This document shows, piece after piece, positions 10,816-32,403 of a stretch of DNA of 64,000 nucleotides. Below the pieces are notes generated by a model. It saw only the letters and a program-made list of their open reading frames with translations, did no database searches and had not been told where the DNA came from. The stretch spans positions 1 through 64,000 of the IMG/VR virus record IMGVR_UViG_3300033571_024374, one strand, 5' to 3'. The DNA is from a virus. Each line of letters opens with the position of its first letter. Within the stretch, counting starts at the first letter, position 1. The translations under genes were made by a program, and so were the position numbers.

Positions 10816-11541
10816 TTACGCTTTTTTCTCTTCTGATGGAAATACATTTGCAGCAAGATTATCCTTTGTTCCAGCATCTGCTTTATCGAGCATTGAAACA
10901 TCAGAAAATTTTGAAGCCGCAATAGCTAAAAGTTGACCGAAATTAGTAACTTTTGATTTACCACCAAATACAATTACAATTGGAAGTTCAACTAATAATC
11001 CTTCTGGATTTACCTTTGTATATCCTTCATTAGGGAAAAATACTAATGATGCAGCTTGAGTAGAAAGTCCATTTTTAACATCGCCAGCTTCCCAGGAGAT
11101 TTTGTTTTCTGGTGTATCTGATGTATGCATGAAAAATCCTTTAGGTGCACTGTCACCAATAGCTTTCGCATCAAGAGCAATTTCATCTAAAGCTTTGATA
11201 AAATCAGCTTCTTTAGGCAACTTCATAGTTTCTAGATTTGAACCAGGTGCTGTACCTTTTAAAAGTGCTTTACCGCTACCCACTTCTTCTATTGCAAGAA
11301 CTCTAACATTTACTGCTGTAGAATCTTTAGAATCTGTTGATTTTTTCTCAACACCTCTACCTACAATACTAGTTAAAAGTTTTCTCATTTCATCTGGATT
11401 TTTAGCGGAATAAAAATCTTTTTGCAAAATGTCTAAAACTGGTGTTGCAAATGATTTTGAAGGACTAAATTCTACTTTTGGGGCAGCCGCAGCTTGATCT
11501 TGTTCATTAAGCCAAGATTCAAAAAGTTTAAGGTATTTCAT
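10816..11541 (-). CDS. Internal-type capsid protein with targeting leader (paralog 1 of 3)
   Basis: The protein has 241 residues. The leader MKYLKLFESWLNE is followed by QDQAAAA, so L-N-E/Q looks like a prohead-protease site. The rest is alternating strand and helix and shares its layout with the genes at 12361 and 16303: VLDI-x2-DF early on, a basic/Ser stretch, a central hydrophobic strand block, and a C-terminal LAIAASKFSDVSMLDKADAG resembling FATTKFANIAMLKNANAG. I infer an abundant internal head protein, comparable in role to T4 internal proteins. It has its own GATATATA promoter and a strong terminator. Confidence 0.8.
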   Translation of the reverse strand: MKYLKLFESWLNEQDQAAAAPKVEFSPSKSFATPVLDILQKDFYSAKNPDEMRKLLTSIVGRGVEKKSTDSKDSTAVNVRVLAIEEVGSGKALLKGTAPGSNLETMKLPKEADFIKALDEIALDAKAIGDSAPKGFFMHTSDTPENKISWEAGDVKNGLSTQAASLVFFPNEGYTKVNPEGLLVELPIVIVFGGKSKVTNFGQLLAIAASKFSDVSMLDKADAGTKDNLAANVFPSEEKKA

Positions 11542-11694: not shown

Positions 11695-11726
11695 TTTGCA
11701 TAGTTCAATTCTTTTTATTATCTTTG
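11695..11726 (+). promoter_or_regulatory. Bacteroidetes-type promoter (TTTG, 20 bases, TATCTTTG)
   Basis: TTTG 11695-11698 and TATCTTTG 11719-11726 with a 20-base spacer. ATG 11758 lies 31 bases downstream. Almost the same sequence precedes the paralog at 15706. Confidence 0.75.
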
Positions 11727-11757
11727 TAGTAGAAATCGATAGCAAAGGAATTATGTT

Positions 11758-12318
11758 ATGAAAAAATTAATTTTACTCGTGCTCTTAAGCACATCTATGT
11801 TGGCTCAAAGTCAGTTCAATACTGGTGATACCATCACAGCCATAGACAAACTACGCTTTTTGGATTCCTTAAATAAATATAGAATCCTTGCAGGTGTAAA
11901 ACCTTTACAATACTCTTTTCGCCAAGATAGTTTGGCTAAAATAAGAACAGAAACAATATTTAATCGTATCGATAGCATTACGGAAGATGATTATAAATCA
12001 GAAATCCTTAGTCACATGCATTTTAATTTAAGAAAAGACATCAAAAGATTTGATAAATCCCATATTCCAGTTGATAGTTTTATTCAAATGTATGGTGAAT
12101 GCTCGGCAAGATTGAATAGACTAAATGTTTGTAAAGACCTAATATCTGAACTTTTTAATGGATGGAAAAATAGTAAAGAACACTGGGAAATTATGTTAGA
12201 TCCCAATTATGAATATATCTCTTTGAACTGGTTTATAGATAACCATAGACATATTAGACTACGTAAAGGAACTATTGCTTCATTAGTTTTAATTAAATAT
12301 GATATTGTAAAAAAATAA
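11758..12318 (+). CDS. Secreted CAP/SCP-domain protein (1 of 6)
   Basis: The protein has 186 residues. It has a signal peptide (MKKLILLVLLSTSMLAQ, cut likely before Q). The body follows the CAP (SCP/PR-1) pattern: FLDSLNKYRILAGVKPLQYS, then a His in SHMHFN, GECSARLN, then FNGWKNSKEHWEIMLDPNY and a final strand (GTIASLVLI). CAP proteins are secreted, and their function in bacteria and phages is mostly unclear. The host-type promoter suggests early expression. It is closely related to the genes at 13842 and 15706 and less so to 13224, 14454 and 15059. Confidence 0.8.
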   Translation: MKKLILLVLLSTSMLAQSQFNTGDTITAIDKLRFLDSLNKYRILAGVKPLQYSFRQDSLAKIRTETIFNRIDSITEDDYKSEILSHMHFNLRKDIKRFDKSHIPVDSFIQMYGECSARLNRLNVCKDLISELFNGWKNSKEHWEIMLDPNYEYISLNWFIDNHRHIRLRKGTIASLVLIKYDIVKK

Positions 12319-12322
12319 AAAT

Positions 12323-12344
12323 GGGGAAGTCAAATGACTTCCCC
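12323..12344. terminator. Terminator between convergent genes
   Basis: GGGGAAGTCA/TGACTTCCCC stem with a 2-base loop. The minus-strand side is followed by a long T-rich run, so it best terminates the gene at 12361, but it can serve both directions. Confidence 0.85.
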
Positions 12345-12360
12345 TTAATAGAATCATATA

Positions 12361-13089
12361 TTAATTTTTCTCAACTTCTACACCTTTACCTGGAGCATAG
12401 TTTTCAGGAATTTCATAACCTAGTGCTTTAGCAAGATTTTTTGGATTACCAGCATTTGCATTTTTCAACATTGCAATATTTGCAAATTTGGTTGTCGCGA
12501 ATGCTGCAATATTACCAAGGGTCGATTCAATAATCGTTTCTTTAGCACCTTTAGTGTGATCATATACAATCCAATCAGAACTCAAAACAAAATCTTCAGG
12601 TTTTCCAGCTTTGTCTGAACTTACCAAAACAATCTTTTTCTTTTCGGGATTATTCGTTTGCTCAATGGTGTCTTTATGTGAACCACCTAAAATATCTTCA
12701 CCACCCATTGAAACAACATAAATAGATTTTGCATCTTGAATCTTACCTGCATTTATACAAGTTATGAATGCCGCATTACCATCTTTGTCTTTTAAAGTGA
12801 ATCTAACATTATCAGTTTTGTCCTGACCTGGAACTGTTTTAAAATCAGTTACTGTGAAAAATGAAACTCTGATTTTTGAATCTGTTACTTTTTCACTTTT
12901 ATCAAAGCATTTGGCTAAAATACTACCTATAATTACTCTTTTTTGCTCGTCATCTGCTTTAGTGAAATCTTCATTACTAATATCTACAATGCGAGTGTCA
13001 AATGGTTTGCTGGGGTCAAAAGGTTTTACTTCTGATGTTGCTCCCTCTGCTTCATTCAACCAATTTTCAAAAAGTTTAAGATATTTCAT
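12361..13089 (-). CDS. Internal-type capsid protein with targeting leader (paralog 2 of 3)
   Basis: The protein has 242 residues. The leader MKYLKLFENWLNEAEG fits an L-N-E/A protease site. Downstream it shares with the gene at 16303 the motifs VKPFDPSKPF, DITNxDF-like, IIGSILAKC and a C-terminal LGNIAAFATTKFANIAML, ending KALGYEIPENYAPGKG; paralog 1 (10816) is more distant. No catalytic motif is visible. A prohead-packaged internal protein is the best guess. The upstream 34-bp repeat carries its promoter. Confidence 0.8.
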   Translation of the reverse strand: MKYLKLFENWLNEAEGATSEVKPFDPSKPFDTRIVDISNEDFTKADDEQKRVIIGSILAKCFDKSEKVTDSKIRVSFFTVTDFKTVPGQDKTDNVRFTLKDKDGNAAFITCINAGKIQDAKSIYVVSMGGEDILGGSHKDTIEQTNNPEKKKIVLVSSDKAGKPEDFVLSSDWIVYDHTKGAKETIIESTLGNIAAFATTKFANIAMLKNANAGNPKNLAKALGYEIPENYAPGKGVEVEKN

Positions 13090-13098
13090 AAAAATGTA

Positions 13099-13132
13099 AA
13101 ATAATGTTTAATAATTTTAGTTTATATATCAG
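13099..13132. repeat. 34-bp repeat, copy 2
   Basis: Identical to 11551-11584; see that entry. Located just upstream of ATG 13089. Confidence 0.85.
13123..13130 (-). promoter_or_regulatory. Putative late promoter GATATATA
   Basis: 33 bases upstream of ATG 13089, the same distance as in its repeat partner. Confidence 0.6.
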
Positions 13133-13154
13133 CTTTAAGCTATATTTTTCTAGA

Positions 13155-13186
13155 TTTGGAAAATTTATTATTTTTTATTATGTTTG
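13155..13186 (+). promoter_or_regulatory. Bacteroidetes-type promoter (TTTG, 20 bases, TATGTTTG)
   Basis: TTTG 13155-13158 and TATGTTTG 13179-13186, 37 bases before ATG 13224. Confidence 0.7.
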
Positions 13187-13223
13187 TACCAGACTATTTA
13201 AAAACTTAAACTAAAGGAAACTT

Positions 13224-13826
13224 ATGAAAACGATTATCTATTTCTTAATTATTTTGACATTCCAGACTATCACAGTAGCTCAAGATACTGAAGATTCTGG
13301 TTCTGATACTAATACATACAAGACTGAAGAAATATTTGTAAGTAGTGATTTCGATGTACTTGAAATCAAACAATTATTTTTAGATTCTTTAAATGCCGTA
13401 AGAAAAAGAAATAAATTCCCAGAACTAAAGTATAATTATGAACTTGAAGGATTAGTTAAATTAAGAACTAAAACTATTATAGATCATGTAGATCATATTG
13501 AAGATAAACTATATTACTCTAATTATATTAAGTTTAATCAATATAAGAATATCAGGGACTACAAATACTACTTTAATAATAATCTCTTTTTGGATCCAGC
13601 CCCGATGATTATCCACGAAGGTAATTTGTCAGTACCATCATATTACAAAGTAAAAGAAGTAATATTACATACAATTCAATCAATGAAAGATAATAAAAAA
13701 TCATGGAAAGAATTTTATGATCTTAAATATACCCATGTTGCCTTTGATTTTAGAAAAGGCGTAAGGCGAACAGTAGTATCAGTTATATTCTCTAAAAGAA
13801 GGTTTAATCCTGTCCCTAATAAATAA
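13224..13826 (+). CDS. Secreted CAP-like protein (2 of 6, divergent)
   Basis: The protein has 200 residues. It has a signal peptide (MKTIIYFLIILTFQTITVAQ) and an acidic/Thr-rich insert before the domain. FLDSLNAVRKRNKFPELKYN aligns with the first CAP helix of its neighbours, and KLRTKTIIDHVDHI matches LRTETIFKHIDSI. The C-terminal W-x-x-x-x-H block is degraded (KDNKKSWKEFYDLKYTHVAF), so this is the most divergent copy. It shares a transcript with 13842 and 14454 (gaps of 15 bases each). Confidence 0.72.
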   Translation: MKTIIYFLIILTFQTITVAQDTEDSGSDTNTYKTEEIFVSSDFDVLEIKQLFLDSLNAVRKRNKFPELKYNYELEGLVKLRTKTIIDHVDHIEDKLYYSNYIKFNQYKNIRDYKYYFNNNLFLDPAPMIIHEGNLSVPSYYKVKEVILHTIQSMKDNKKSWKEFYDLKYTHVAFDFRKGVRRTVVSVIFSKRRFNPVPNK

Positions 13827-13841
13827 TTCAATAAGGCTACA

Positions 13842-14438
13842 ATGTATAATCTAATGAATATATCGCTTATCATTTTGTTTGGAACTATGTCTTTAATGGC
13901 TCAAAGCCAATATAAGACTGGTCATACTATTACTAGCCAAGACAAACTACGTTTCTTGGATTCTTTGAATAAGTATAGGATTCTTGCAGGTGTAGAACCA
14001 TTAGAATATTCATTCCAAGAAGATAGTTTGGCTAAATTAAGAACGGAAACTATTTTTAAACATATTGATAGTATCTCTGAAGAAGAATATAGATTAAATC
14101 CTTTAGAAAATCTTCATTTCAATTTCGTAGAAGATATTAAGAAATACATAACCGAAAATATTCATCAGGATAGCGTTCTCTACTGGAGTGCAGAATGCTC
14201 TGCAAGAATTAGCAAATTGAATAATCCAGATGATTTGATTAATGAACTGTTTAACGGATGGAAAAATAGTAAAGACCACTGGAAAGTTATGTTAGACGGC
14301 AGATATACATCTATATCACTCTCATGGCATATAGATAATTATAGGAATATTAGAAAAAGAAAAGGAACTATCGCGTCTCTGGTACTTTTTAAAAAAGATA
14401 TGACAAAAAAAGAAAAAGAAAGACGAAGTAAATTATAA
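13842..14438 (+). CDS. Secreted CAP/SCP-domain protein (3 of 6)
   Basis: The protein has 198 residues with a signal peptide ending LMAQ. The CAP pattern is clear (FLDSLNKYRILAGVEPLEYS, AECSARIS, FNGWKNSKDHWKVML, GTIASLVLF). The stretch from RFLDSLNKYRILAG through LAKLRTETIFKH is nearly identical to the gene at 15706, which implies a recent duplication or gene conversion. It ends with a Lys/Arg-rich tail (KKEKERRSKL). It is the middle gene of the 13224-14954 unit. Confidence 0.8.
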   Translation: MYNLMNISLIILFGTMSLMAQSQYKTGHTITSQDKLRFLDSLNKYRILAGVEPLEYSFQEDSLAKLRTETIFKHIDSISEEEYRLNPLENLHFNFVEDIKKYITENIHQDSVLYWSAECSARISKLNNPDDLINELFNGWKNSKDHWKVMLDGRYTSISLSWHIDNYRNIRKRKGTIASLVLFKKDMTKKEKERRSKL

Positions 14439-14453
14439 TCAGGTTACCTATTT

Positions 14454-14954
14454 ATGAAAGAACTTATCATCTTCTTGTTTACAGTTACATCTGTATTTGC
14501 TCAGGATTCAAATAATGTTAAAATTATTAAAAAAATTAATGAACTCCGTGTATCTAAAGGTTTAGATACTTTAAAATATGATGAAAGCTTATTTTTAGTA
14601 GGTAAAGACTGGAGTAAGTATATTCTCCATAAAATTAATAATTTTTCTGTAAATAAATTATCTTCAAATCATTATAAAAATCCAATGTTTCTTCATATCA
14701 ATTATAATTCACGATTTGACCAAGTTTTAAAAAGAAAAGATGTATTTTCTATTGGAGAAAATATTAACCTTTCACTTGATATTGAAGATACCAATAATAT
14801 TATAGATCATGCATTTGATTGCTGGAAGAAAAGCTCAAACCATTATAATCTCATGGTCAAAAAAGAACAAACTAATGTAGCATTTAGCTTTTCTTATAGT
14901 AAAAAAACAAAAAGAATGCTATGTATATTAGTTATATCTGAAAATATAAAATAA
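14454..14954 (+). CDS. Secreted CAP/SCP-domain protein (4 of 6, most canonical)
   Basis: The protein has 166 residues with a signal peptide MKELIIFLFTVTSVFAQ. It is closest to the textbook CAP layout: KKINELRVSKGLDTLKYDE at the first helix, SIGENINLS (the G-E-N motif), and FDCWKKSSNHYNLM (W-x-x-S-x-x-H-x-x-x-M). This gene is what makes the CAP assignment of the whole cluster convincing. It is the last gene of its unit. Confidence 0.83.
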   Translation: MKELIIFLFTVTSVFAQDSNNVKIIKKINELRVSKGLDTLKYDESLFLVGKDWSKYILHKINNFSVNKLSSNHYKNPMFLHINYNSRFDQVLKRKDVFSIGENINLSLDIEDTNNIIDHAFDCWKKSSNHYNLMVKKEQTNVAFSFSYSKKTKRMLCILVISENIK

Positions 14955-15022
14955 AAAAGGGACATTTACATATACTAATGAATTTAAAATATTTTTCTTA
15001 CATGATCCAATATATTTTTTAT

Positions 15023-15030
15023 TATCTTTG
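15023..15030 (+). promoter_or_regulatory. Bacteroidetes-type -7 element TATCTTTG
   Basis: TATCTTTG lies 28 bases before ATG 15059 in the same context (TTTTTTATTATCTTTGTCTT) as the promoter at 15666. A TTTG -33 element is not evident. Confidence 0.55.
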
Positions 15031-15058
15031 TCTTAGAAATTAAATAAGGATATATGTC

Positions 15059-15628
15059 ATGAAACGACTCATCATCTTTTTATTTGCAGCTACGTCTGTA
15101 TTTGCACAGACTCAGTTCAAAACTGGCGATATGATCACTACTCAGGATAAACTACGTTTCTTGGATTCTTTGAATAAATACCGAAATATGTATGGAATAC
15201 CTGAATTAAAATATTCATTCAAGTATGAAGGTATTTCTGTAAATAGAATAGAGACCATTAGAACTCATATTAAAAAGATAGGTTATGAAGAATGTAGGAA
15301 GGACATCAGAAAACATTTACATATTAATTTTATGGAAGATTTCTGCAAATTTAATATCAATACTCTACCAGAAGACACTACATTTACTTGGAAGGGCGAA
15401 TGCACTCTTTCTGTAAATAATGGCTATGTCCTTGAAAAAAAACTTGATATTATTACTGAAATTTTTACAGCTTGGAAAGAAAGCCAAGACCATTGGTGCA
15501 ATATGCTTGATCCAGATTTTAAATATATTGCTTTGGCTTTTGAATACAAAGACGGAATAATCATTTCGGTACTTAATTCCTTTGATTTAGAATGTACCGA
15601 TGTTGAAAAGAAATCTTGTAATAAATAA
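15059..15628 (+). CDS. Secreted CAP/SCP-domain protein (5 of 6)
   Basis: The protein has 189 residues with a signal peptide (MKRLIIFLFAATSVFAQ). It shows FLDSLNKYRNMYGIPELKYS, GECTLSVN, and TAWKESQDHWCNMLDPDFKYIALAF. It has more cysteines than its paralogs, several near the C-terminus (ECTDVEKKSCNK). Possible disulfides would fit a secreted protein. Its first 45 residues are nearly identical to other copies, while the body has diverged. Confidence 0.78.
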   Translation: MKRLIIFLFAATSVFAQTQFKTGDMITTQDKLRFLDSLNKYRNMYGIPELKYSFKYEGISVNRIETIRTHIKKIGYEECRKDIRKHLHINFMEDFCKFNINTLPEDTTFTWKGECTLSVNNGYVLEKKLDIITEIFTAWKESQDHWCNMLDPDFKYIALAFEYKDGIIISVLNSFDLECTDVEKKSCNK

Positions 15629-15641
15629 TTAATAAAATAAA

Positions 15642-15673
15642 TTTGCATAATTCAATATTTTTTATTATCTTTG
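15642..15673 (+). promoter_or_regulatory. Bacteroidetes-type promoter (TTTG, 20 bases, TATCTTTG)
   Basis: TTTG 15642-15645 and TATCTTTG 15666-15673, 32 bases before ATG 15706. It closely matches the promoter at 11695-11726. Confidence 0.75.
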
Positions 15674-15705
15674 TCTTAGAAATTAAATCAATAAGGAATT
15701 ATGTT

Positions 15706-16278
15706 ATGAAACAACTCGTCATCTTCTTGTTTACATTTACATCTGTATTTGCACAGAATCAATTCAAAACTAGCGATACTATTACAAATGAAGACAAACT
15801 ACGCTTCTTGGATTCTCTAAATAAGTATAGAATCCTTGCAGGTGTAGAACCATTAGAATATTCATTCCAAGAAGATAGTTTGGCTAAATTAAGAACGGAA
15901 ACTATTTTTAAACATGTTGATAGTATTTCTGAAGAAGAATACAAATCAGATTGGATGGAACATCAGCATCATAGATTCATCGAAGATGTTAGAAAATACG
16001 ACAAATCAAATGTTCATAAAGATACTGTTATCAATTGGAGCGCAGAATGCTCCGCTCGAATCAGCAAATTAAATAATCCAGATGATTTAGTTAATGAATT
16101 GTTTCAAGGATGGAAGAATAGTAAAGCACATTGGAAAATGATGCTTGAACCGAAATTTAAATATATTGTATTAGATTGGTTCATCGATAATCAAAGGCAC
16201 ATAAAATTACGCAAAGGAACTATTGCATCTCTCGTACTTTTTAGTAAAAGGTTTAATGAAAATTCAAGGGGTAACTAA
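15706..16278 (+). CDS. Secreted CAP/SCP-domain protein (6 of 6)
   Basis: The frame is open from 15643, but that extension contains the promoter; ATG 15706 gives a clean signal peptide (MKQLVIFLFTFTSVFAQ) and 190 residues. CAP motifs: FLDSLNKYRILAGVEPLEYS, MEHQHHRF (His), AECSARIS, FQGWKNSKAHWKMMLEP, and GTIASLVLF. It is nearly identical to the gene at 13842 in the first half. It converges on the internal-protein gene at 16303 through a shared terminator, just as 11758 converges on 12361. Confidence 0.8.
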   Translation: MKQLVIFLFTFTSVFAQNQFKTSDTITNEDKLRFLDSLNKYRILAGVEPLEYSFQEDSLAKLRTETIFKHVDSISEEEYKSDWMEHQHHRFIEDVRKYDKSNVHKDTVINWSAECSARISKLNNPDDLVNELFQGWKNSKAHWKMMLEPKFKYIVLDWFIDNQRHIKLRKGTIASLVLFSKRFNENSRGN

Positions 16279-16302: not shown

Positions 16303-17037
16303 TTATTTAGTTGTAACTTCTATACCACCATCTTTCGGTGCATAATTATCAGGAATCTCATATCCCAATGCTTTAGCAATGTTTTGTGGTTTCCCTGCAT
16401 TTGCATCTTTCAATATAGCCAAATTTTCAAAGTTTGATGTAGCAAAAGCACAAATTCCACCAAGTGTAGTTTTAATAGCTTGGATACTTTCTTTAGGATC
16501 TGACCAATTTATTAAATGACCTTCTTCATAAAGGCAGAAGCCATTACCAGAAGAATCACCACTCATACCACTTGGAAAGAATAAAAATGTTTTAGGTTTC
16601 TTTAAAATATTAGGATAACCCGTTTCTGACACCCAATCTTCTCCACTATATTTACTAATGTAGTATACAGAATCACCTTCTTGCAAATTAAGATCATTTG
16701 GAATGATCATTTTTATTGTCTTAGAAACTCCACTAGCTCTTCCTTCTTTTACAAAAATTGTAGCAGTTTTTAAATATTGAGGTATTCTTATTTCTTCAAT
16801 ATTGAATTTGATAATAGTAAGTTCAGAATCCTTTTCTTTTTCATTTTTCTTTACACATTTTCCCAAAATACTGCCCATAATTCTACTTGAATATTTACCA
16901 TCATCCTGATTAAAATCAAGTGATGTAATATCCACTACAAGAGTTTCTCCTGGTTTTTTAGGATCAAATGGTTTTACTTCTGATTTTCCTTCTTCTGCTT
17001 CGTTGAGCCAATTCTCAAACAATTTTACATATTTCAT
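16303..17037 (-). CDS. Internal-type capsid protein with targeting leader (paralog 3 of 3)
   Basis: The protein has 244 residues. The leader MKYVKLFENWLNEAEE is nearly the same as paralog 2. Shared motifs are VKPFDPKKPG, IMGSILGKC, LGGICAFATSNFENLAIL and KALGYEIPDNYAPKDG. It lacks catalytic motifs. Together with the convergent CAP gene it repeats the arrangement seen at 11758-13089. It has its own GATATATA promoter 30 bases upstream. Packaging is inferred from the leader. Confidence 0.8.
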   Translation of the reverse strand: MKYVKLFENWLNEAEEGKSEVKPFDPKKPGETLVVDITSLDFNQDDGKYSSRIMGSILGKCVKKNEKEKDSELTIIKFNIEEIRIPQYLKTATIFVKEGRASGVSKTIKMIIPNDLNLQEGDSVYYISKYSGEDWVSETGYPNILKKPKTFLFFPSGMSGDSSGNGFCLYEEGHLINWSDPKESIQAIKTTLGGICAFATSNFENLAILKDANAGKPQNIAKALGYEIPDNYAPKDGGIEVTTK

Positions 17038-17494: not shown

Positions 17495-18145
17495 ATGGCA
17501 AATGGTGTACACAAAATAACAGAAGAGTTTGAGAATAAACTTTCGGATTATACGGGTGCACCATTTACCATATGTGTTGATAATCAAAGTAATGCCTTAT
17601 TTTTATCGTTAACTTATTACAAATTAAAGCATAATCTTAAAGATTTAGTTGTAAATATACCTCAAAGAACATACCCTTCAGTACCCTGTGAAATAATACA
17701 TACAGGATCAAAAGTAAAGTTTATAGAATCCGAGGGTAAAACATTAAAGGGAGCATATCAACTAGCCCCCACGAATGTTTGGGATTCTGCCCTACGCTTC
17801 ACATCAAATATGTATATTCCGAATTCCTTTATGTGTTTATCATTTACAGGACCCTACAAGCACCTGAAGTTATCTAAAGGTGGAGCAATACTCACAGATG
17901 ATTTTCAGGCCTACAAATGGTTTAAAAAAGCAAGATTCTCAGGGCGTGATGAATGTAGTTATCATGATGATGATTTTGATAACAATCCAGTTATCGGATG
18001 GAATTTTTATATGATGCCAGAAATAGCTACTAGGGGTCTTTTACTATTGCAACAGTTCTATAATGCAGATGGAACAAAGAAAACTAACGAAGATATTGAA
18101 TTGCCATATCCAGACCTAAGTAAGTATAAATTATATCAACAATAA
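17495..18145 (+). CDS. Short DegT/DnrJ/EryC1-type sugar aminotransferase
   Basis: The protein has 216 residues against about 370 for the family. The matching parts are FENKLSDYTGAPFTICVDN (N-terminal), VWDSALRF, and FTGPYKHLKLSKGGAILTDD, which is the region holding the PLP-binding Lys. Family members make amino sugars on nucleotide carriers. The C-terminal small domain seems to be missing, so the protein may be a minimal form, a partner subunit, or inactive. It is followed by an acyltransferase after 1 base and by a glycosyltransferase, which together look like a sugar-decoration unit. Confidence 0.7.
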   Translation: MANGVHKITEEFENKLSDYTGAPFTICVDNQSNALFLSLTYYKLKHNLKDLVVNIPQRTYPSVPCEIIHTGSKVKFIESEGKTLKGAYQLAPTNVWDSALRFTSNMYIPNSFMCLSFTGPYKHLKLSKGGAILTDDFQAYKWFKKARFSGRDECSYHDDDFDNNPVIGWNFYMMPEIATRGLLLLQQFYNADGTKKTNEDIELPYPDLSKYKLYQQ

Positions 18146-18146
18146 T

Positions 18147-18713
18147 ATGTTTTACAATTCTTCAGAGTTATCAAAGTTAGGGTTTAAATCAGTAGGTAAA
18201 AATGTTTTATTATCTGATAAATGTTCAATATACAATCCAAGTAATATATCAATTGGTGATAATGTTAGAATAGATGATTTTTGCGTTCTCAGCGCAGGAA
18301 TTGGGGGTATACATATAGGAAACTATATTCATATTGCAGTTTACTGTAGTTTAATAGGAAATGGTAAAATAACACTTGAAGATTTTTCAGCATTATCGTC
18401 AAGAGTGTCTGTATATAGTTCAACTGATGATTTTAGCGGTGAGTTTTTGACCAACCCAATAATTGATAAACAATACACAAACGTTATTAATGGAGATGTT
18501 AGAATTGGTAAGCATTCAGTCATTGGAGCTGGCTCAATAATATTACCGAATGTAGACGTAGGAAACTTTTCTTCTGTTGGAGCAATGTCCCTTTTAAATA
18601 AAAATGTTGAAGAATATAAAATAGTCGCTGGAATACCAGCAAAGGTAATAAAAAATAGAAGTGCCAAACTAAATGAACTTGAGCGTGAGTTTCTGAAAAA
18701 TAAAAAGTCCTGA
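18147..18713 (+). CDS. Left-handed beta-helix (hexapeptide) acyltransferase
   Basis: The protein has 188 residues. It contains hexapeptide repeats (ISIGDNVRIDDFCVLSAG, IHIGNYIHIAVYCSLIG, VRIGKHSVIGAGSIIL) and the C-terminal VAGIPAKVIKNR typical of sugar O- or N-acetyltransferases of the WbbJ/FdtC kind. The candidate catalytic His lies in the IGNYIHIAV/IGKHSVIG turns. Following a DegT-like aminotransferase, an amino-sugar N-acetyltransferase is the likeliest role, but the substrate is unknown. Confidence 0.82.
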   Translation: MFYNSSELSKLGFKSVGKNVLLSDKCSIYNPSNISIGDNVRIDDFCVLSAGIGGIHIGNYIHIAVYCSLIGNGKITLEDFSALSSRVSVYSSTDDFSGEFLTNPIIDKQYTNVINGDVRIGKHSVIGAGSIILPNVDVGNFSSVGAMSLLNKNVEEYKIVAGIPAKVIKNRSAKLNELEREFLKNKKS

Positions 18714-18746
18714 TTTAAGCAAGTTTAAAATTACACCAGAAATAAT

Positions 18747-19544
18747 ATGATTACAAAAAAACACCTTATTGTATTTTTGGCATTTAAAGAAGTCGATATT
18801 ATTAAAAAAAGTTTTGAGAGTATAAAGGATGTCTCTTCAGATATATTCGTTATCGAAAATAAATCTGAGAACTCTCAAGAAATAGAAGAATACTTTAAGT
18901 CTAAATCAGAATCTTTAATTGGATATATTCAGTTTAATGAAAATACTGAAAATAGCTCGATTCCTCTTTTCAATAAAGCATTCAAGGATTTAGTTACAAG
19001 TTATGAATACATAACATATACAGATGGTGATTTATATGCTTATGATGCAGAAGAAATGTTCAGAGAAATACTTGAAGCATTTAAAAACCCCAGAGTTATG
19101 GTATCTTCAAGTGCAGTATGGGAAGGAAACTATTCTTTTATTAATTCAAAAGAATATATTGATATAATCAAAAAAAATAAGAGTAATTTAAAGCCTTTAG
19201 AATTAAGAAAAGGATTCGAAGATTTTTTAAACGAACAAAAAGATAATAATCGTGATTTTGGAAGTAAAAATTTTCCTGTCAGTTTATCTACTGGTCATTT
19301 TTTTGTTACTTTTAGAAATCAAGACTTAAAACATATTTTTGATATAGAAATCTATATGGATGCATATATTTATAGGAAGGTAATAGAGATGAAAAGGGAA
19401 TGGCATATTACAAATAGAAATATATCATATCATATGTCTTGGGATTTATATTATCAAGGGAGTTCTTATTATGAATGGAAAAGAGAGATCAAAGATACTC
19501 TTTGGAAGATTGTAAAAGAATCTGATTTTAGGGTTATAGTATGA
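18747..19544 (+). CDS. Glycosyltransferase-like protein (GT-A fold)
   Basis: The protein has 265 residues. The N-terminus KKHLIVFLAFKEVDIIKKSF with DIFVIENKSEN, followed by YITYTDGDLYAYDAEEM, resembles a GT-A glycosyltransferase with the metal-binding D-x-D (DGD). The C-terminal part (YMDAYIYRKVI, SYHMSWDLYY) would form the acceptor side. The target may be virion protein, host surface or DNA. It closes the 17192-19544 unit and is followed by a strong terminator. Confidence 0.65.
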   Translation: MITKKHLIVFLAFKEVDIIKKSFESIKDVSSDIFVIENKSENSQEIEEYFKSKSESLIGYIQFNENTENSSIPLFNKAFKDLVTSYEYITYTDGDLYAYDAEEMFREILEAFKNPRVMVSSSAVWEGNYSFINSKEYIDIIKKNKSNLKPLELRKGFEDFLNEQKDNNRDFGSKNFPVSLSTGHFFVTFRNQDLKHIFDIEIYMDAYIYRKVIEMKREWHITNRNISYHMSWDLYYQGSSYYEWKREIKDTLWKIVKESDFRVIV

Positions 19545-19626: not shown

Positions 19627-20118
19627 TCATTTTACCATTTGAGAATTATTGTAAGCCATTTCATAATTTATTCTCTTAATGACTTTATTCCAATATTTCT
19701 TTGTCGCTTTCTTCTTATGTCCATTTGGACCGCCATTCCATTTTCTTGCTATCAATTCCATTTCCTGTTCAGAAATATTATTGACATTAATATTTGGGTT
19801 ATAGAATTTCTGATATATCCAGAACATTTCTTCTGATTTTTCTTTGTTATTACGATCAGCAAGTGTGAACTTTTTTTCAATTCCTTTAATTTCACAAATT
19901 CTATTAACTTCTTTAACCATGACTGATTTAATCTGGACGATGCCTACTGATCCATCCCTAGACACAGCTTTGGGGTTATGAGTAGATTCGATCCAAGCGA
20001 TAGATGAGAATAAAACATCCTTCATCTTTAAATCTTTTTTCAACGGTGCGGTCGCAGTTGCACAAATAGCTAGGAATATAAATCCTATAAGTGTGCATTT
20101 AACATAATGTTTAATCAT
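19627..20118 (-). CDS. Exported lytic transglycosylase (SLT type)
   Basis: The protein has 163 residues. A hydrophobic N-terminus (CTLIGFIFLAICATATA) looks like a signal peptide. The catalytic Glu44 sits in AWIESTHNP, followed by SVGIVQIK (the G-x-x-Q-I motif) and ARKWNGGPNG. These are hallmarks of the SLT lysozyme fold, which cuts the glycan strand of peptidoglycan. The upstream AAGGAAGG is an unusually good Shine-Dalgarno-like stretch for this genome. It could act in lysis or in wall remodelling. Confidence 0.85.
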   Translation of the reverse strand: MIKHYVKCTLIGFIFLAICATATAPLKKDLKMKDVLFSSIAWIESTHNPKAVSRDGSVGIVQIKSVMVKEVNRICEIKGIEKKFTLADRNNKEKSEEMFWIYQKFYNPNINVNNISEQEMELIARKWNGGPNGHKKKATKKYWNKVIKRINYEMAYNNSQMVK

Positions 20119-20287
20119 TCATCCTTCCTTTTTATTTTTGGTAAAGAGGTCGTATATAGCTGATAAAGATACTGAATTTAACGGATTTTACAAAATTTTT
20201 ATTATTCTTGGTATCCCCAAATGGACTAAAAGTATGAAATAATACTAATAAATTACCATTTATTAAAAGTTTGTAATAAATAGCATT

Positions 20288-20674
20288 TTAGGAGTTGAGT
20301 GGGTTAACTTTAAATTTTATTAAATAGATCGGAGAGGATATGAGACTATGTTCAATTTGAGATGTAAGACCATGTGTAAATACATGAATTACATCATTAT
20401 TTAATAAAATATTCTGGAAAAAATCAAAGTTTAGATTATATTTAAAATTAAACATAATCTGTATATTGAATGAAAAACTCTTACTTTCTTGAATCTTAAT
20501 AAAATCAATAAGTTCAAGACACCTCATGGAACTGAGATAATTCTTATTCACTTTATTAATGTCTAATTCCCTTACTTCAAGATCCTTCTCAAATGCTCTA
20601 TAAATAAGAGTTATAGCCTTTTTATTATATCTAATGTCATCTTTATGCATAATACAATTATATATTGAGAGCAT
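20288..20674 (-). CDS. Protein of unknown function
   Basis: The protein has 128 residues (or 120 if it starts at the ATG at 20650). I recognise no domain. It is hydrophobic and aromatic in the second half (FNFKYNLNFDFFQNILLNN). The gap to the gene at 20118 (169 bases) holds nothing I can identify beyond the SD-like site of that gene. Confidence 0.55.
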   Translation of the reverse strand: MLSIYNCIMHKDDIRYNKKAITLIYRAFEKDLEVRELDINKVNKNYLSSMRCLELIDFIKIQESKSFSFNIQIMFNFKYNLNFDFFQNILLNNDVIHVFTHGLTSQIEHSLISSPIYLIKFKVNPLNS

Positions 20675-20718
20675 TCAATACTTAATGATACTTATGTGAA
20701 AATATCTTTTTAAATCTA

Positions 20719-20726
20719 GATATATA
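20719..20726 (+). promoter_or_regulatory. Putative late promoter GATATATA
   Basis: 30 bases upstream of ATG 20757, first gene of a two-gene leader-bearing unit. Confidence 0.6.
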
Positions 20727-20756
20727 ATGCAATAAACAAACAATACAAGAATTATT

Positions 20757-22190
20757 ATGATCCCTAATTTTAATAATTTTCAGAAATTTAATTCTGAAAA
20801 TCAAAAACTAAACGAAGGAAATTTTATTTCATCGGATATTACAGGACTTGTTGATACTGATGCCGCAGCTAAACTGTCAGCTCTTACAATAGACAAGCTG
20901 TTTGAAGGTTTAGATTTAGAAAAAAGTGACCAGATGCATAGATTTATTGCTACAAATGCTCCGTCACTACAAGAAGTTATGGGACTTAATATAGCAGATG
21001 ATACATTTTCATTTGAGATTATTAAGCAACAACTAAATTATATTGCAGAAAAAATTGCCTTTGTTGAAAAGGATTTTGCGAAATATTATAATTATATCAT
21101 AAGTGCTTACAAAACTACAGCTGATGATAAAGTAGAGGGAGCAGTAGCAGGATTTACTTCACCAGAAGGTTTTTCATCAATAATCCCACAAATAGAAGAA
21201 TTAGTACAAGAAGCAAAAAAATCTGGGATGGACTTTACAAATCCTAGAATTTTAGAAACATTTAATGCTTTACATAGAATTAATATCTCTAATATAATAG
21301 GTGAAATATCTAAAGTATTAGAACAATCTTCATTTACATATGGACTTGTAAATATCTATAAGAAAGTTGACGCTATGGAATTGGAAGAAATAGAATCTAA
21401 TTCTGCGATTTCAAATCCTGATATCTATATTGCTGAATACTTGAATTTAGACGAATTATATAAATCAGAAGATCCAGTTGCTCGAATGGCAGCATTCTTT
21501 GAAGAAGTTTTAAATGTTTATCCTTATATCAAACAACTTAAGAGAAATTTCAATGAAACTTATGATATAATTGAGAGTGATTTAGTTGAAGCTTCTATTC
21601 ATCAATTTATTCCTTCTATGGATTATTCAGCATTTGATCAAATGTCTGAATTATTAAATAAAGTATGCGGATTACTTGTTAATAGAGTTTATGTAAATAA
21701 CCCAGTTGAAGATAATAAAAACATTTTCGTACCAGCATTACAAGCTATTTACATTGGTCTTTTGGCTATTGTTTCAACAAAGTTAATTAACTTTAATATT
21801 CAAGTTCAAACGACTATAACTCAAAAAGAAGAAGAGAAAAAACAGATGTTAGCGAAAACTGCTGAAGATAGAGTTCGTAATGTCTATAACTCTTACAAAC
21901 TTCTTATTGAACAAGGATTCTTTACACCTGGTAGTGGTGTCTATAAAGAAGGTGCTTTAGGTATGAATCCAGAGATTATTAAAAATATCCATTATTTCCT
22001 CAATAGTTTAAAATTATTACCAGATACAAAAGTAGATTCAGATGTATATGACAGAGCTACTGCTGATGCTGTTATTAAGTTTCAAACTATAAATAAGGCT
22101 CAAAAGGTTGATGGTAAAATTGGATCAGAAACAAAAGCTATAATGGACAAAACTGCTAACTTTTTAGCTGATAAATATAATATAATATAA
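20757..22190 (+). CDS. Leader-bearing protein with C-terminal peptidoglycan-binding domain
   Basis: The protein has 477 residues. It starts MIPNFNNFQKFNSENQKLNE/G, a leader with L-N-E at residues 18-20. The long middle is mostly helical, with one hydrophobic stretch (ALQAIYIGLLAIVSTKLINF). The last 80 residues are a PG_binding_1-like domain (MNPEIIKNIHYFLNSLKLL, then TADAVIKFQ, then VDGKIGSETKAIMD). A packaged protein that binds the wall and may insert into membrane fits an ejection (pilot) protein, but this is inferred. The next gene starts 3 bases later. Confidence 0.78.
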   Translation: MIPNFNNFQKFNSENQKLNEGNFISSDITGLVDTDAAAKLSALTIDKLFEGLDLEKSDQMHRFIATNAPSLQEVMGLNIADDTFSFEIIKQQLNYIAEKIAFVEKDFAKYYNYIISAYKTTADDKVEGAVAGFTSPEGFSSIIPQIEELVQEAKKSGMDFTNPRILETFNALHRINISNIIGEISKVLEQSSFTYGLVNIYKKVDAMELEEIESNSAISNPDIYIAEYLNLDELYKSEDPVARMAAFFEEVLNVYPYIKQLKRNFNETYDIIESDLVEASIHQFIPSMDYSAFDQMSELLNKVCGLLVNRVYVNNPVEDNKNIFVPALQAIYIGLLAIVSTKLINFNIQVQTTITQKEEEKKQMLAKTAEDRVRNVYNSYKLLIEQGFFTPGSGVYKEGALGMNPEIIKNIHYFLNSLKLLPDTKVDSDVYDRATADAVIKFQTINKAQKVDGKIGSETKAIMDKTANFLADKYNII

Positions 22191-22193
22191 GAT

Positions 22194-23279
22194 ATGAAAA
22201 GAAGAATTTTAAACTTTGAAAGTTTCTTATTAGAAAATACAAAACCTACAGTTATTAATGAAGATTTAAACTTAAGTGCTATCCCTTCATCAGAACTTCA
22301 GGCAATCATTGATACAGATATGAAATCATATCTTAAAAAAGTTATGTGGAATAAGAGTATTGAAGTATTCTATGGTAAAGATTACAAAGGAAATCCAACA
22401 GAAGACAAAAGAGAAGTCTATACTGGTGCATGGTTCAGTGGTCATGATAAGCACACTATGGGAGAATTTTTCCAAGATGCTTGGGTTGAAACTGATCAAT
22501 TCTGTGATAGAGTAGTTGAACTAGTAGAAACTGGAGAGATTTCAGATACATGGAAATCTGTTGGTAAAACATTGTTCTGGAGTGGAGTTGGTGCTGGTGT
22601 AGTAGCTGGAATAGTATTTACTGGTGGAGGACTTTTAGGATTAGGTGCTGCAGCTGGTACTGGTGCAACTGGAGTATTTACAGCAGCTGGTACTGCAGCT
22701 TTGGGTACTGGTTTTGGAATTAGTTCTACAGTTTTTGGTGGACTAGGAACTATTATTTGGAATATAAAAGGTTCTCTAGATCAAGAAGAATTTAAAAAAT
22801 TGAGCCCTGAGGTAGTCAATGTTTTAAATATGATCAATGATAAAGAAGGAACAATTAGCTATTTTAAAGATAAACTAGAAAGACATTCAGACCACGAAGC
22901 TGATTGGGGATTAGACAGATGGCTTCCTGCAATTCAAGGTATGCCAGGCTGGAGCAAAAGTTCATGGGCTAAAAATGGAGCTGAAAATATAGGGTATTCC
23001 TTCACATATTGGATTTCTTATTATGCTTATCAATATTTACAAGCAAAATTCGGTGCTTCAGTTGCACTAGCGGCTCAAGAAAGTCTGACTAAACAAGCAA
23101 CTCAGCCAGCTCAACCTAAAGTAGAGCCTATATCCACTGAGCCTTCTACACAAGAGAAAGACACTCAAACTGCTCCGAATACAACTACCCCACCCTCTGG
23201 TGGCGTTATGGGTGCAGTTCAGCCTAAACAATATAATATAGTTGTGGATGATTCAACGGTATCTAATTATGATTTGTAA
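22194..23279 (+). CDS. Leader-bearing hydrophobic protein, paralog of the protein at 9325
   Basis: The protein has 361 residues. The leader MKRRILNFESFLLEN is followed by TVINE/D. The FYGKDYKGNP region matches IYGKGYQGDP of the gene at 9325. Between lies a glycine/alanine-rich hydrophobic stretch of about 60 residues (VGAGVVAGIVFTGGGLLGLG onward) that could span a membrane. The C-terminus is Pro/Gln/Thr-rich. It is co-transcribed with the PG-binding protein at 20757, which suggests both act during DNA entry through the envelope. Confidence 0.75.
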   Translation: MKRRILNFESFLLENTKPTVINEDLNLSAIPSSELQAIIDTDMKSYLKKVMWNKSIEVFYGKDYKGNPTEDKREVYTGAWFSGHDKHTMGEFFQDAWVETDQFCDRVVELVETGEISDTWKSVGKTLFWSGVGAGVVAGIVFTGGGLLGLGAAAGTGATGVFTAAGTAALGTGFGISSTVFGGLGTIIWNIKGSLDQEEFKKLSPEVVNVLNMINDKEGTISYFKDKLERHSDHEADWGLDRWLPAIQGMPGWSKSSWAKNGAENIGYSFTYWISYYAYQYLQAKFGASVALAAQESLTKQATQPAQPKVEPISTEPSTQEKDTQTAPNTTTPPSGGVMGAVQPKQYNIVVDDSTVSNYDL

Positions 23280-23300
23280 TTAAAGATTACATAGAAAAAG

Positions 23301-23325
23301 AAAAGGAGACTTTTAGTCTCCTTTT
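23301..23325. terminator. Bidirectional terminator
   Basis: AAAAGGAGACT/AGTCTCCTTTT stem, 3-base loop, followed by T-rich sequence; it touches the stop of the convergent gene at 23325. Confidence 0.87.
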
Positions 23326-23966
23326 TATTTTGTATTAGAACTTTTCCAGATTAAAACATTCGGATACCTATTCCCTTTATTTGAAGAATATTCTTCAACT
23401 CCATTCTGATAATAAAATGTCGATGAACCTCCATCAAAATTAAGAGCTGAAATGCATCCTAATTCTAACATTTTATCCTGTAAACTTTTTAAAGTAGAAG
23501 CAGAACTTATAAATACAAGTACAGTACCATCTTTTAATATACCCACAGCAGTTCTTGGACAGTTTCGTCTAGCAAAATGACTGTTAATTACCCTTTGTTT
23601 CTCTCCATCTTGAATTAATAATGGAAACCCACTAGCCATGTAATTATATTCAAAATCAGGAGATTCATTCCATTTTAATATCTTTATACTTGTATTAGAA
23701 AGATATAATACAGGCCAGCGTTTTGAATTCTTGTGAGAAACTATAGAAGTATCTTTATAGGGACCTACGAAGGTTTTTGTTGTGAAGAAAGAAAGATTGC
23801 ACATTGACATAGCCCCTCTCTTTTCTTTGAACCAAAGAGAAGTTTTTCTGACCGATGATGATTCCATTCTGATTTCATGTGTCTTTACGAAAAATGTCCA
23901 ATCTTTAGAATTTAATGGAATATAACTCGATACTAATAGGGTTAGTATTATTGTTAATATTTTCAT
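23325..23966 (-). CDS. Exported phosphodiester glycosidase (NAGPA-type) protein
   Basis: The protein has 213 residues with a signal peptide (MKILTIILTLLVSSYIPLNS). It carries the NAGPA/DUF2233 features: ASGFPLLIQDGE, CPRTAVGILKDGTVLVF, LQDKMLELGCISALNFDGGS. The N-F-D-G-G-S block is the family signature. The founding enzyme removes GlcNAc from a phosphodiester; in bacteria, relatives act in the envelope. Here it may act on wall or capsule glycans of the host. A GATATATA copy begins 9 bases upstream of the start codon, which would make the mRNA nearly leaderless. Confidence 0.82.
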   Translation of the reverse strand: MKILTIILTLLVSSYIPLNSKDWTFFVKTHEIRMESSSVRKTSLWFKEKRGAMSMCNLSFFTTKTFVGPYKDTSIVSHKNSKRWPVLYLSNTSIKILKWNESPDFEYNYMASGFPLLIQDGEKQRVINSHFARRNCPRTAVGILKDGTVLVFISSASTLKSLQDKMLELGCISALNFDGGSSTFYYQNGVEEYSSNKGNRYPNVLIWKSSNTK

Positions 23967-23974
23967 TACTTTTC

Positions 23975-23982
23975 TATATATC
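23975..23982 (-). promoter_or_regulatory. Possible late promoter GATATATA (very close to the start)
   Basis: The exact octamer lies only 8 bases from ATG 23966, closer than in all other cases, so it may be chance or drive a leaderless mRNA. Confidence 0.35.
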
Positions 23983-24015
23983 CGAAAAGTAACTTAAAAA
24001 TAGGATTTTTAGGTT

Positions 24016-24906
24016 TTACATTCTAAAATAACTGAGGAGAGAACTCACAGCATCAATATTAGTAAGCATGTGATTCATTCCTTTTTTCGAGGTAAATACG
24101 CTGTTTACTATTAAATTTTGAGCATTTAAATTTCTTGATCCGCCTGCTGAGGTTGAGGTTCCAGTATAGTAGTATTCTACCTTGGATGGGTATTTTTTGG
24201 CTAAATCTACATAAAAATCAGCAACACTTTGATTTTTACCAATATAAATATCAACTAAATATATTTTTTCAAATTGTTCAGGACTAACTGATTTTAGCAG
24301 AGTGATACCAGGTCTGAAACCACCTGAAAATAGATATAATATCTTTTTATCAGGATAAATATTTTGACTCTGTACATAATCAGATATCTTCTGATAAGCA
24401 TCTAAACCATTTATTTTATGATTTTTAGCTACAAACAAATTAAACTTTGTACCTGCTTCCTTAAAATAATCGTACATGTAATCGCCACTTTCTCTTCCAT
24501 TTACATTTATACCACCATATACAAATATTAAAGGGGCTTTATCGTACATAGAAGGTGTAAAGTTACCCAAATCTGAAATTTCCTCACTAGTAGTCTTTGG
24601 GTCATGCAATGCTTCTGGATTTTGGGTATATGTATTATTTACAGAACTTAAACCTAATTTATCCAGTGTATCCTTATTTATTACGCCTTTGCTATCTTGT
24701 AACGAATTAGCACTTTGAAATTTTGAAAGTGCTTCACTTGTAGCTTGACCAAATTTACCGTCAATTGAATTTTTCCCATTATACAAAGTAGGAGCAAGAA
24801 AACCTTTATCTACTAGAATCTTTTGGATGTCCATAATTGTAGATTGAGCTTGACCTTGATTATCATAAGATCTAGATTCATTTAAATATTCGTAAAATGT
24901 TCTCAT
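24016..24906 (-). CDS. Leader-bearing protein: peptidoglycan-binding domain plus alpha/beta-hydrolase-like domain
   Basis: The frame is open from ATG 25017, but I prefer ATG 24906 (296 residues): it yields the leader MRTFYEYLNE/SRS, and a GATATATA octamer sits 24 bases before it, inside the longer frame. The extra 37 residues of the long form are a strongly hydrophobic signal-like segment, so both forms may be made. Next comes a PG_binding_1 domain (IMDIQKILVDKGF, SIDGKFGQATSEALSKFQ). The C-terminal domain (PLIFVYGGINV, ILYLFSGGFRPG with a candidate Ser, late His in MNHMLTN) resembles an alpha/beta hydrolase. Confidence 0.65.
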   Translation of the reverse strand: MRTFYEYLNESRSYDNQGQAQSTIMDIQKILVDKGFLAPTLYNGKNSIDGKFGQATSEALSKFQSANSLQDSKGVINKDTLDKLGLSSVNNTYTQNPEALHDPKTTSEEISDLGNFTPSMYDKAPLIFVYGGINVNGRESGDYMYDYFKEAGTKFNLFVAKNHKINGLDAYQKISDYVQSQNIYPDKKILYLFSGGFRPGITLLKSVSPEQFEKIYLVDIYIGKNQSVADFYVDLAKKYPSKVEYYYTGTSTSAGGSRNLNAQNLIVNSVFTSKKGMNHMLTNIDAVSSLLSYFRM

Positions 24907-24930
24907 ATCAACGGAATTTTTTATCACACC

Positions 24931-24938
24931 TATATATC
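24931..24938 (-). promoter_or_regulatory. Putative late promoter GATATATA inside a longer open frame
   Basis: 24 bases upstream of ATG 24906. Its position supports the internal start with the LNE leader. Confidence 0.5.
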
Positions 24939-25028
24939 TAGAATCACTACTTAAAGTTAAGTCTAAAGATACAACAATGAGTATAACGATCAATATTACT
25001 ACTTTTTTTATATTCATACTTACTATTT

Positions 25029-26216: not shown

Positions 26217-26286
26217 ATATGTGTTTATATTAAATTTATTGCTATATTTGCATACTTTGTATTTTAATCTATATAGCAATAATTTT

Positions 26287-26502
26287 ATGAAAATCACGAA
26301 AAAAAGAAATTCTGAGGCCGATACTAAAAAAATTGAAGAGTTAAAGAAAATTACTATGGATTTGATCCATAATGGCTACGGCTCAGATATGATAGGAATG
26401 GACCCTGAGAGTTTAGTAAAAATGGCTCTGAAACATGCAAAACATGTTTACAAATCTAAACAGATTTTAAACTCTTTTACTAATGAACACTTTTTAGACT
26501 GA
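26287..26502 (+). CDS. Small charged protein of unknown function
   Basis: ATG 26287 gives 71 residues (the frame is open from 26221, inside the divergent promoter region). It is Lys-rich and helical (DTKKIEELKKITMDLIHNGY). TATATTTG at 26242-26249 resembles the host-type -7 element. No family is recognised. Confidence 0.6.
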   Translation: MKITKKRNSEADTKKIEELKKITMDLIHNGYGSDMIGMDPESLVKMALKHAKHVYKSKQILNSFTNEHFLD

Positions 26503-26519
26503 TTAATATTTATCAGTCT
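26496..26519. terminator. Possible terminator between convergent genes
   Basis: AGACTGAT/ATCAGTCT stem with an 8-base AT loop spans both stop codons (26502 and 26513). The stem is short and AT-rich, so the call is weaker than the others. Confidence 0.5.
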
Positions 26520-32359: not shown

Positions 32360-32403
32360 AGTTTAGGCTTAAAATGAGAAAAAGAAAAATTAAACGAGAA
32401 AAA

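What the first reader, a model, noticed from the sequence alone, without database searches (positions are those of the whole stretch)
11758..16278. Six tandem secreted CAP/SCP-domain proteins in a phage
Six plus-strand genes (11758, 13224, 13842, 14454, 15059, 15706) each have a signal peptide and CAP motifs (N-x-x-R early, G-E-N or G-E-C, W-x-x-S-x-x-H-W late). CAP proteins are mostly known from eukaryotic secreted proteins and some bacteria, and an array of diverging paralogs in a phage is unexpected. Host-type promoters suggest they are made early and exported, perhaps to alter the envelope, block other phages, or bind sterol or lipid-like ligands.
Basis: partly seen in the sequence, partly recalled or inferred. 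Interest (0 to 1): 0.72.

Follow-up and report, generated by a model that had tools for sequence, protein, structure and literature searches.

The report
Phage array of exported CAP proteins
A large virus of Bacteroidota bacteria carries six tandem copies of one small exported protein of the CAP family, made from host-type promoters, which probably act on the envelope of the infected cell; other large phages examined carry only one copy or none, and the function is untested.

Summary
Five of the six genes (11758, 13842, 14454, 15059, 15706) pass Pfam's CAP cut-off, and a model of one matches bacterial CAP structures. The sixth (13224) is a divergent paralog without the CAP histidines, grouped by alignment and tree only. 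All six have signal peptides ending in Ala|Gln, the Bacteroidota 'Q-rule' pattern, and are the only such proteins a heuristic found in ~198 kb of this phage. Promoters matching the Bacteroidota sigma-A consensus sit 37-46 nt before genes 11758, 13224, 15059 and 15706. The six form one clade, so one ancestor was probably captured and amplified, and they look under purifying selection. CAP genes are ordinary in Bacteroidota (123 of 297 genomes, at most 4 each). Three other lineages of large phages each carry one exported CAP, also with Gln after the cleavage site. The phage CAP is therefore a recurring accessory gene, expanded sixfold here. Likely role: envelope change during infection, perhaps exclusion of competing phages; this last step is inference.

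The parts
11712..11727 (+). Bacteroidota-type promoter (TTTTTATTATCTTTGT, with TTTG box upstream) for CAP gene A
11758..12318 (+). CAP gene A, 186 aa, signal peptide ..MLA|QSQF (Q-rule)
   Evidence: PF00188 26.8 bits over cut-off 21.1
12323..12344 (.). Stem-loop between convergent genes A and 12361-13089, terminator-like (scored on the - strand)
13172..13187 (+). Bacteroidota-type promoter (TTTTTATTATGTTTGT) for the B-C-D run
13224..13826 (+). Gene B, 200 aa, divergent paralog with signal peptide TVA|Q; both CAP histidines lost; no Pfam CAP hit
13842..14438 (+). CAP gene C, 198 aa (inner ATG at 13854), signal peptide LMA|Q; predicted CAP fold
   Evidence: PF00188 32.9 bits; AlphaFold2 pLDDT 70.8, Foldseek best PDB match BB0689
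14454..14954 (+). CAP gene D, 166 aa, signal peptide VFA|Q; most canonical member, GEN kept
   Evidence: PF00188 36.9 bits
15016..15031 (+). Bacteroidota-type promoter (TTTTTATTATCTTTGT) for CAP gene E
15059..15628 (+). CAP gene E, 189 aa, signal peptide VFA|Q
   Evidence: PF00188 28.8 bits
15659..15674 (+). Bacteroidota-type promoter (TTTTTATTATCTTTGT) for CAP gene F
15706..16278 (+). CAP gene F, 190 aa, signal peptide VFA|Q; shares a near-identical N-terminal tract with gene C
   Evidence: PF00188 28.6 bits
16266..16289 (.). Stem-loop terminator at the end of gene F, scored on both strands
10816..11541 (-). Neighbour, not part of the CAP family: paralog 1 of 3 starting MKYLKLFE.WLNE (perhaps capsid-targeted)
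   Evidence: function inferred
12361..13089 (-). Neighbour: paralog 2 of 3 of the MKYLKLFE family
16303..17037 (-). Neighbour: paralog 3 of 3 of the MKYLKLFE family

Best explanation
The locus is a phage accessory array of six exported CAP-domain proteins. Supported by sequence: five are CAP proteins and the sixth is a degenerate paralog; all carry signal peptides of the Bacteroidota Q-rule type; four promoters of Bacteroidota sigma-A type precede them; they form one clade and look under purifying selection. Inferred: host RNA polymerase transcribes them soon after entry; the proteins leave by the host Sec pathway, are cut by signal peptidase I, and the exposed N-terminal Gln is cyclised to pyroglutamate, which would make them long-lived in the periplasm or outside. 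There they act on the envelope of the infected cell. The most likely service is to change a surface or periplasmic component so that competing phages cannot adsorb or inject (exclusion), with the copies giving dose and perhaps several binding specificities. The nearest functional precedent is the CAP-domain surface protein PrgA of a conjugative plasmid, which gives surface exclusion.
For: CAP profile over cut-off in five; CAP structures top the fold search. Q-rule signal peptides in all six and, by the heuristic used, in no other protein of ~198 kb; Q-rule and its stabilising effect: PMC5837995, PMC10653852. Promoters: 12 TTATNTTTGT sites in 198 kb on both strands, four of them 37-46 nt before CAP starts; TAnnTTTG is the sigma-A -7 consensus in Flavobacterium (PMC9723704). 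One clade 97/92; dN below dS in every block with a finite estimate. Exported CAPs recur singly in three other large-phage lineages, one with a similar TTTGCATAAT...TATCTTTGT promoter. Nearby exported or wall-related genes: SLT transglycosylase, two PG-binding proteins, phosphodiester glycosidase, S41 peptidase. PrgA: mobile-element CAP protein with surface exclusion (PMC10588982).
Against: No experiment known to me links a phage CAP protein to exclusion. PrgA is a large wall-anchored protein of a Gram-positive; these are single-domain proteins of 166-200 aa. Nothing shows timing, final location or partner. The exclusion step rests on analogy. Signal peptides were judged by a heuristic, not by SignalP.
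Confidence: 0.4

Rival explanations
1. Ligand traps or envelope effectors: each CAP protein binds a small hydrophobic ligand, peptide or envelope component in the CAP cavity and so shields the infected cell from envelope stress, antimicrobial peptides or host envelope-sensing defence. Copies differ in ligand.
For: CAP family members bind lipids and sterols in eukaryotes (PMC4921858, PMC5893428); the H-E-H residues of bacterial CAPs are kept in five of six; the middle segment and C-terminal tail diverge faster than the N-terminal block among genes A, C and F; export and host-type promoters as above.
Against: No ligand known to me for a Bacteroidota CAP; no sign of positive selection, and dS is near saturation between most pairs; sterols are not expected in the host.
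Confidence: 0.3
2. Wall or lysis helpers: the CAP proteins work with the nearby transglycosylase and PG-binding proteins to weaken or remodel peptidoglycan at entry or lysis.
For: SLT and PG_binding genes 3-9 kb downstream; a nearest cellular relative, and neighbours of two huge-phage CAP genes, have OmpA-type domains; Bacillus phage CAPs carry LysM (PMC4541274, PMC3861416).
Against: No muralytic CAP enzyme is known to me; host-type promoters do not fit a lysis cassette; no OmpA gene was found in this phage; no PG-binding domain in the six.
Confidence: 0.15
3. Secreted public goods or weapons that act outside the cell, for example on neighbouring bacteria or on grazers.
For: Predicted export with a stabilised N terminus; CAP proteins act as secreted proteins in plant-pathogen contests (PMC10189770).
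Against: No type IX secretion domain was found in the six by Pfam, so periplasmic location is simpler.
Confidence: 0.1
4. A decaying tandem expansion with no present function beyond one or two copies.
For: Gene B has lost both CAP histidines and has no Pfam CAP hit.
Against: All six frames are open with intact signal peptides, four promoters are kept, dN is below dS among A, C, E and F.
Confidence: 0.05

Closest known systems
CAP superfamily, bacterial branch (Pfam PF00188; BB0689 4d53, SAV1118 4h0a, 4ifa)
   Same: Profile match over cut-off in five, predicted fold, N-x-x-R, G/A-E-N/C, W-x-x-S-x-x-H, signal peptide
   Different: Low identity (12-17% in the top structural alignments); gene 13224 lacks the histidines; six tandem copies
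PrgA of conjugative plasmid pCF10 (6z9k)
   Same: CAP domain, exported, encoded by a mobile element
   Different: PrgA has a long stalk, is cell-wall anchored, is described as a likely protease on PrgB (PMC10588982), and sits in a Gram-positive
LysM/YkwD-like CAP proteins of Bacillus megaterium phages Stills and Slash
   Same: Secreted CAP protein in a phage, role unknown
   Different: LysM fused, Gram-positive host; no array reported
Single exported CAPs of huge phages LR756504 and LR756501 and of IMG/VR contigs L194-L201
   Same: Small, signal peptide with Q at the cut, encoded by large phages; one with a similar promoter
   Different: One copy each; those of LR756504 and LR756501 do not group with the array in the tree
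Cellular CAP and CAP-OmpA proteins of Bacteroidota (G115, G317)
   Same: Nearest cellular branch to the array (95/83), up to 27% identity
   Different: In two of the three rows the CAP is the N-terminal part of a long protein (open frames of 777 and 815 aa); they were picked by the array's own profile

Membership tests
CAP superfamily (PF00188) | Match to the family profile over the curated cut-off | tested here: met
   Five of six; not met by 13224
CAP superfamily (PF00188) | CAP alpha-beta-alpha sandwich fold | tested here: met
   Model of 13842 (pLDDT 70.8, shallow alignment): six of the top seven PDB matches are bacterial CAP chains, best E 1e-3, TMt 0.66. 13224: poor model (60.3), weak CAP matches, inconclusive. 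The other four were not modelled
CAP superfamily (PF00188) | Cavity His-Glu-His residues of bacterial CAPs | tested here: met
   Kept in A, C, D, E, F by alignment; histidines lost in B; that these are the cavity residues is from my own knowledge
CAP superfamily (PF00188) | Exported protein | tested here: met
   Heuristic signal peptide in all six; no SignalP available
Bacteroidota Q-rule substrates | Gln directly after the signal peptidase I site | tested here: met
   Six of six
Bacteroidota Q-rule substrates | Pyroglutamate N terminus in the mature protein | not testable with these tools
   Needs mass spectrometry
PrgA-type surface exclusion protein | Stalk and wall anchor presenting the CAP domain | tested here: not met
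   Single-domain proteins of 166-200 aa
PrgA-type surface exclusion protein | Exclusion of competing elements | not testable with these tools
   Needs infection assays
LysM/YkwD-like phage CAP (Stills, Slash) | LysM domain beside CAP | tested here: not met
   No LysM in Pfam scan
Known anti-phage defence proteins | Match to a PADLOC model | tested here: not met
   No match at E 0.01 for the six

The most novel reading that the evidence does not exclude
Large phages of Bacteroidota share an unrecognised class of exported CAP proteins, acquired several times from their hosts, made early and placed in the envelope to shut out rival phages, with copy number raised by tandem duplication under competition.
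Probability: 0.25. Interest if true: 0.75.

Novelty: new variant of a known kind. Interest (0 to 1): 0.5.

Why it matters
The biochemical role of bacterial CAP proteins is poorly known. A phage that keeps six copies, from host-type promoters, gives a compact system in which that role could be tested, and points to exported proteins as a tool of Bacteroidota phages during infection.

Tried and rejected
DNA and tblastn searches of 50,697 phage records found no relative of genes C or D. A degenerate motif scan of viral contigs gave seven hits outside this phage; the frames read at them show no CAP protein and I take them as chance; one of the seven records has a sub-cut-off CAP match elsewhere, the other six none. 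A genome-collection scan with the close paralogs found nothing. Sequence search of PDB chains gave no CAP hit; only the fold search did. Positive selection between paralogs was looked for and not found: dN stays below dS; the sharp contrast between genes C and F comes from a tract with low dS (0.24 against about 1-1.7 elsewhere), which reads as gene conversion. The related phage contig G009 (helicase 84%) has no CAP gene, but it is an 86.8-kb fragment with rearranged gene order, so absence from that phage is not shown; G014 (162.9 kb, helicase 47%) has none, but it too may be incomplete. A late-promoter-like TATATAAACT appeared only before two of the MKYLKLFE genes and was not pursued.

Full report
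What is there. The window belongs to a virus record of 123,972 bases. A second public contig of 199,927 bases is identical over the stretches compared, including the array, and supplies the rest of the genome; it adds no independent evolutionary evidence. The phage has T4-type replication genes in the window and a tail sheath, topoisomerase II and SbcCD-like genes elsewhere. Its helicase is nearest to uncultured huge phages and Prevotella Lak phages among annotated records. Most cellular relatives of its CTP synthase found by a scan are from Bacteroidota.

The six genes. Five pass the CAP cut-off of Pfam. Gene 13224 does not; it aligns with the others at 24-30% identity and keeps N-x-x-R but not the two histidines. 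The AlphaFold2 model of 13842 has moderate confidence (pLDDT 70.8, pTM 0.64, only six sequences) and finds CAP proteins at the top of the PDB (BB0689, SAV1118, 4ifa, PrgA) and SCP-domain proteins of phages and giant viruses in BFVD. The model of 13224 is poor (60.3) and its CAP matches are weak. A profile seeded only with bacterial-type CAP sequences found gene D in its first round, four more in its second and 13224 in the third, by then trained on its paralogs.

Export. All six N termini are signal-peptide-like and put Gln right after an Ala cleavage site. In Bacteroidota most signal peptidase I substrates expose Gln, which becomes pyroglutamate and stabilises the protein (PMC5837995, PMC10653852). 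A simple heuristic over 216 ORFs of ~198 kb found this pattern in the six CAP proteins only (for genes A and C it placed the cut a few residues later; the MLA|Q and LMA|Q sites are read by eye). Most other plausible exported proteins lie just downstream, at 19.6-26.2 kb; that stretch encodes a transglycosylase, a phosphodiester glycosidase, PG-binding proteins and an S41 peptidase.

Expression. TTTTTATTATNTTTGT, which contains the TAnnTTTG sigma-A box of flavobacteria (PMC9723704), lies before genes A, B, E and F; genes B, C and D are 15 nt apart and probably one transcript. Seven sites with up to one mismatch occur in the window against 0.22 expected, and four of the twelve TTATNTTTGT sites in ~198 kb are CAP promoters. 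The looser TAnnTTTG alone is no more frequent in the window than chance, so the claim rests on the longer motif and its position. This suggests transcription by unmodified host polymerase, hence early, but timing is not shown. Part of the promoter likeness is due to duplication with the genes. Stem-loop terminators close gene A and gene F.

Origin. In a tree of 49 CAP domains the six group together (97/92) beside CAP domains of Bacteroidota proteins (95/83, nine rows), one of which also has a weak, below-cut-off OmpA match. Long branches and a bootstrap that had not settled make this moderate evidence for one acquisition and later duplication. The nearest cellular rows were selected by the array's own profile, which favours that placement. 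CAP genes occur in 123 of 297 sampled Bacteroidota genomes with at most four per genome in the listing; six in 4.5 kb is beyond any of them. Among A, C, E and F dN is below dS in all blocks with a finite estimate.

Other phages. Of six huge-phage records, three have one CAP gene. Those of LR756504 and LR756501 have signal peptides followed by Gln; the first also has a TTTGCATAAT...TATCTTTGT promoter, and both lie beside an OmpA-domain gene, over the cut-off in the genome search for both. Further contigs carry copies of these (L194 and L195 identical; L201 at 82%), and a third lineage (L196-L200) has a single exported CAP with Q next to a gene that I read by eye as a gp23-like capsid gene. So single exported CAPs recur in several large-phage lineages; an array was found only here. 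The survey is not exhaustive: no profile scan of all viral contigs was possible.

How it probably works. Export to the envelope is well supported by sequence; the target is not known. I prefer exclusion of competing phages because the genes look host-transcribed, exported, repeated and dispensable (not found in several related records), and because a CAP-domain protein of a conjugative plasmid, PrgA, provides surface exclusion (PMC10588982). Ligand trapping at the envelope is nearly as likely. Neither is shown.

Verdict. A real, well-defined array; identity as CAP proteins secure for five; function inferred. Phage CAP proteins as such are known (PMC4541274, PMC3861416); the sixfold array and the recurring Q-rule export are the new elements.

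Noticed in passing
10816-11541, 12361-13089, 16303-17037 (-): Three paralogs (28-29% identity to the first) interleaved with the CAP genes start MKY[LV]KLFE.WLNE; similar N termini occur on several otherwise unlike proteins of this phage (for example at 6076, 36645, 65814, 182320). This resembles a capsid-targeting leader of the T4 internal-protein type; inference only.
   Followed up: partly
19627-26297: A cluster of exported or wall-related genes: SLT transglycosylase, two PG_binding proteins, NAGPA phosphodiester glycosidase, S41 peptidase with PDZ.
   Followed up: partly
17495-19544, 28172-29392 and 47078-48919: Surface-sugar type genes: DegT aminotransferase, hexapeptide transferase, a possible glycosyltransferase, RmlD-like reductase, UDP-glucose dehydrogenase.
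   Followed up: no
26513-28105 (-): Phage CTP synthase, up to about 50% identical to bacterial ones.
   Followed up: partly
32374-34071 (+) and 37242-38480 (-): Two ankyrin-repeat proteins in the phage.
   Followed up: no
13924-14285 and 15776-16137: Stretch shared by genes C and F at 82.9% DNA identity; its N-terminal block has low synonymous divergence (dS 0.24), consistent with gene conversion.
   Followed up: yes
L044 and L045: In huge phages LR756504 and LR756501 the single CAP gene lies next to an OmpA-domain gene on the opposite strand.
   Followed up: partly
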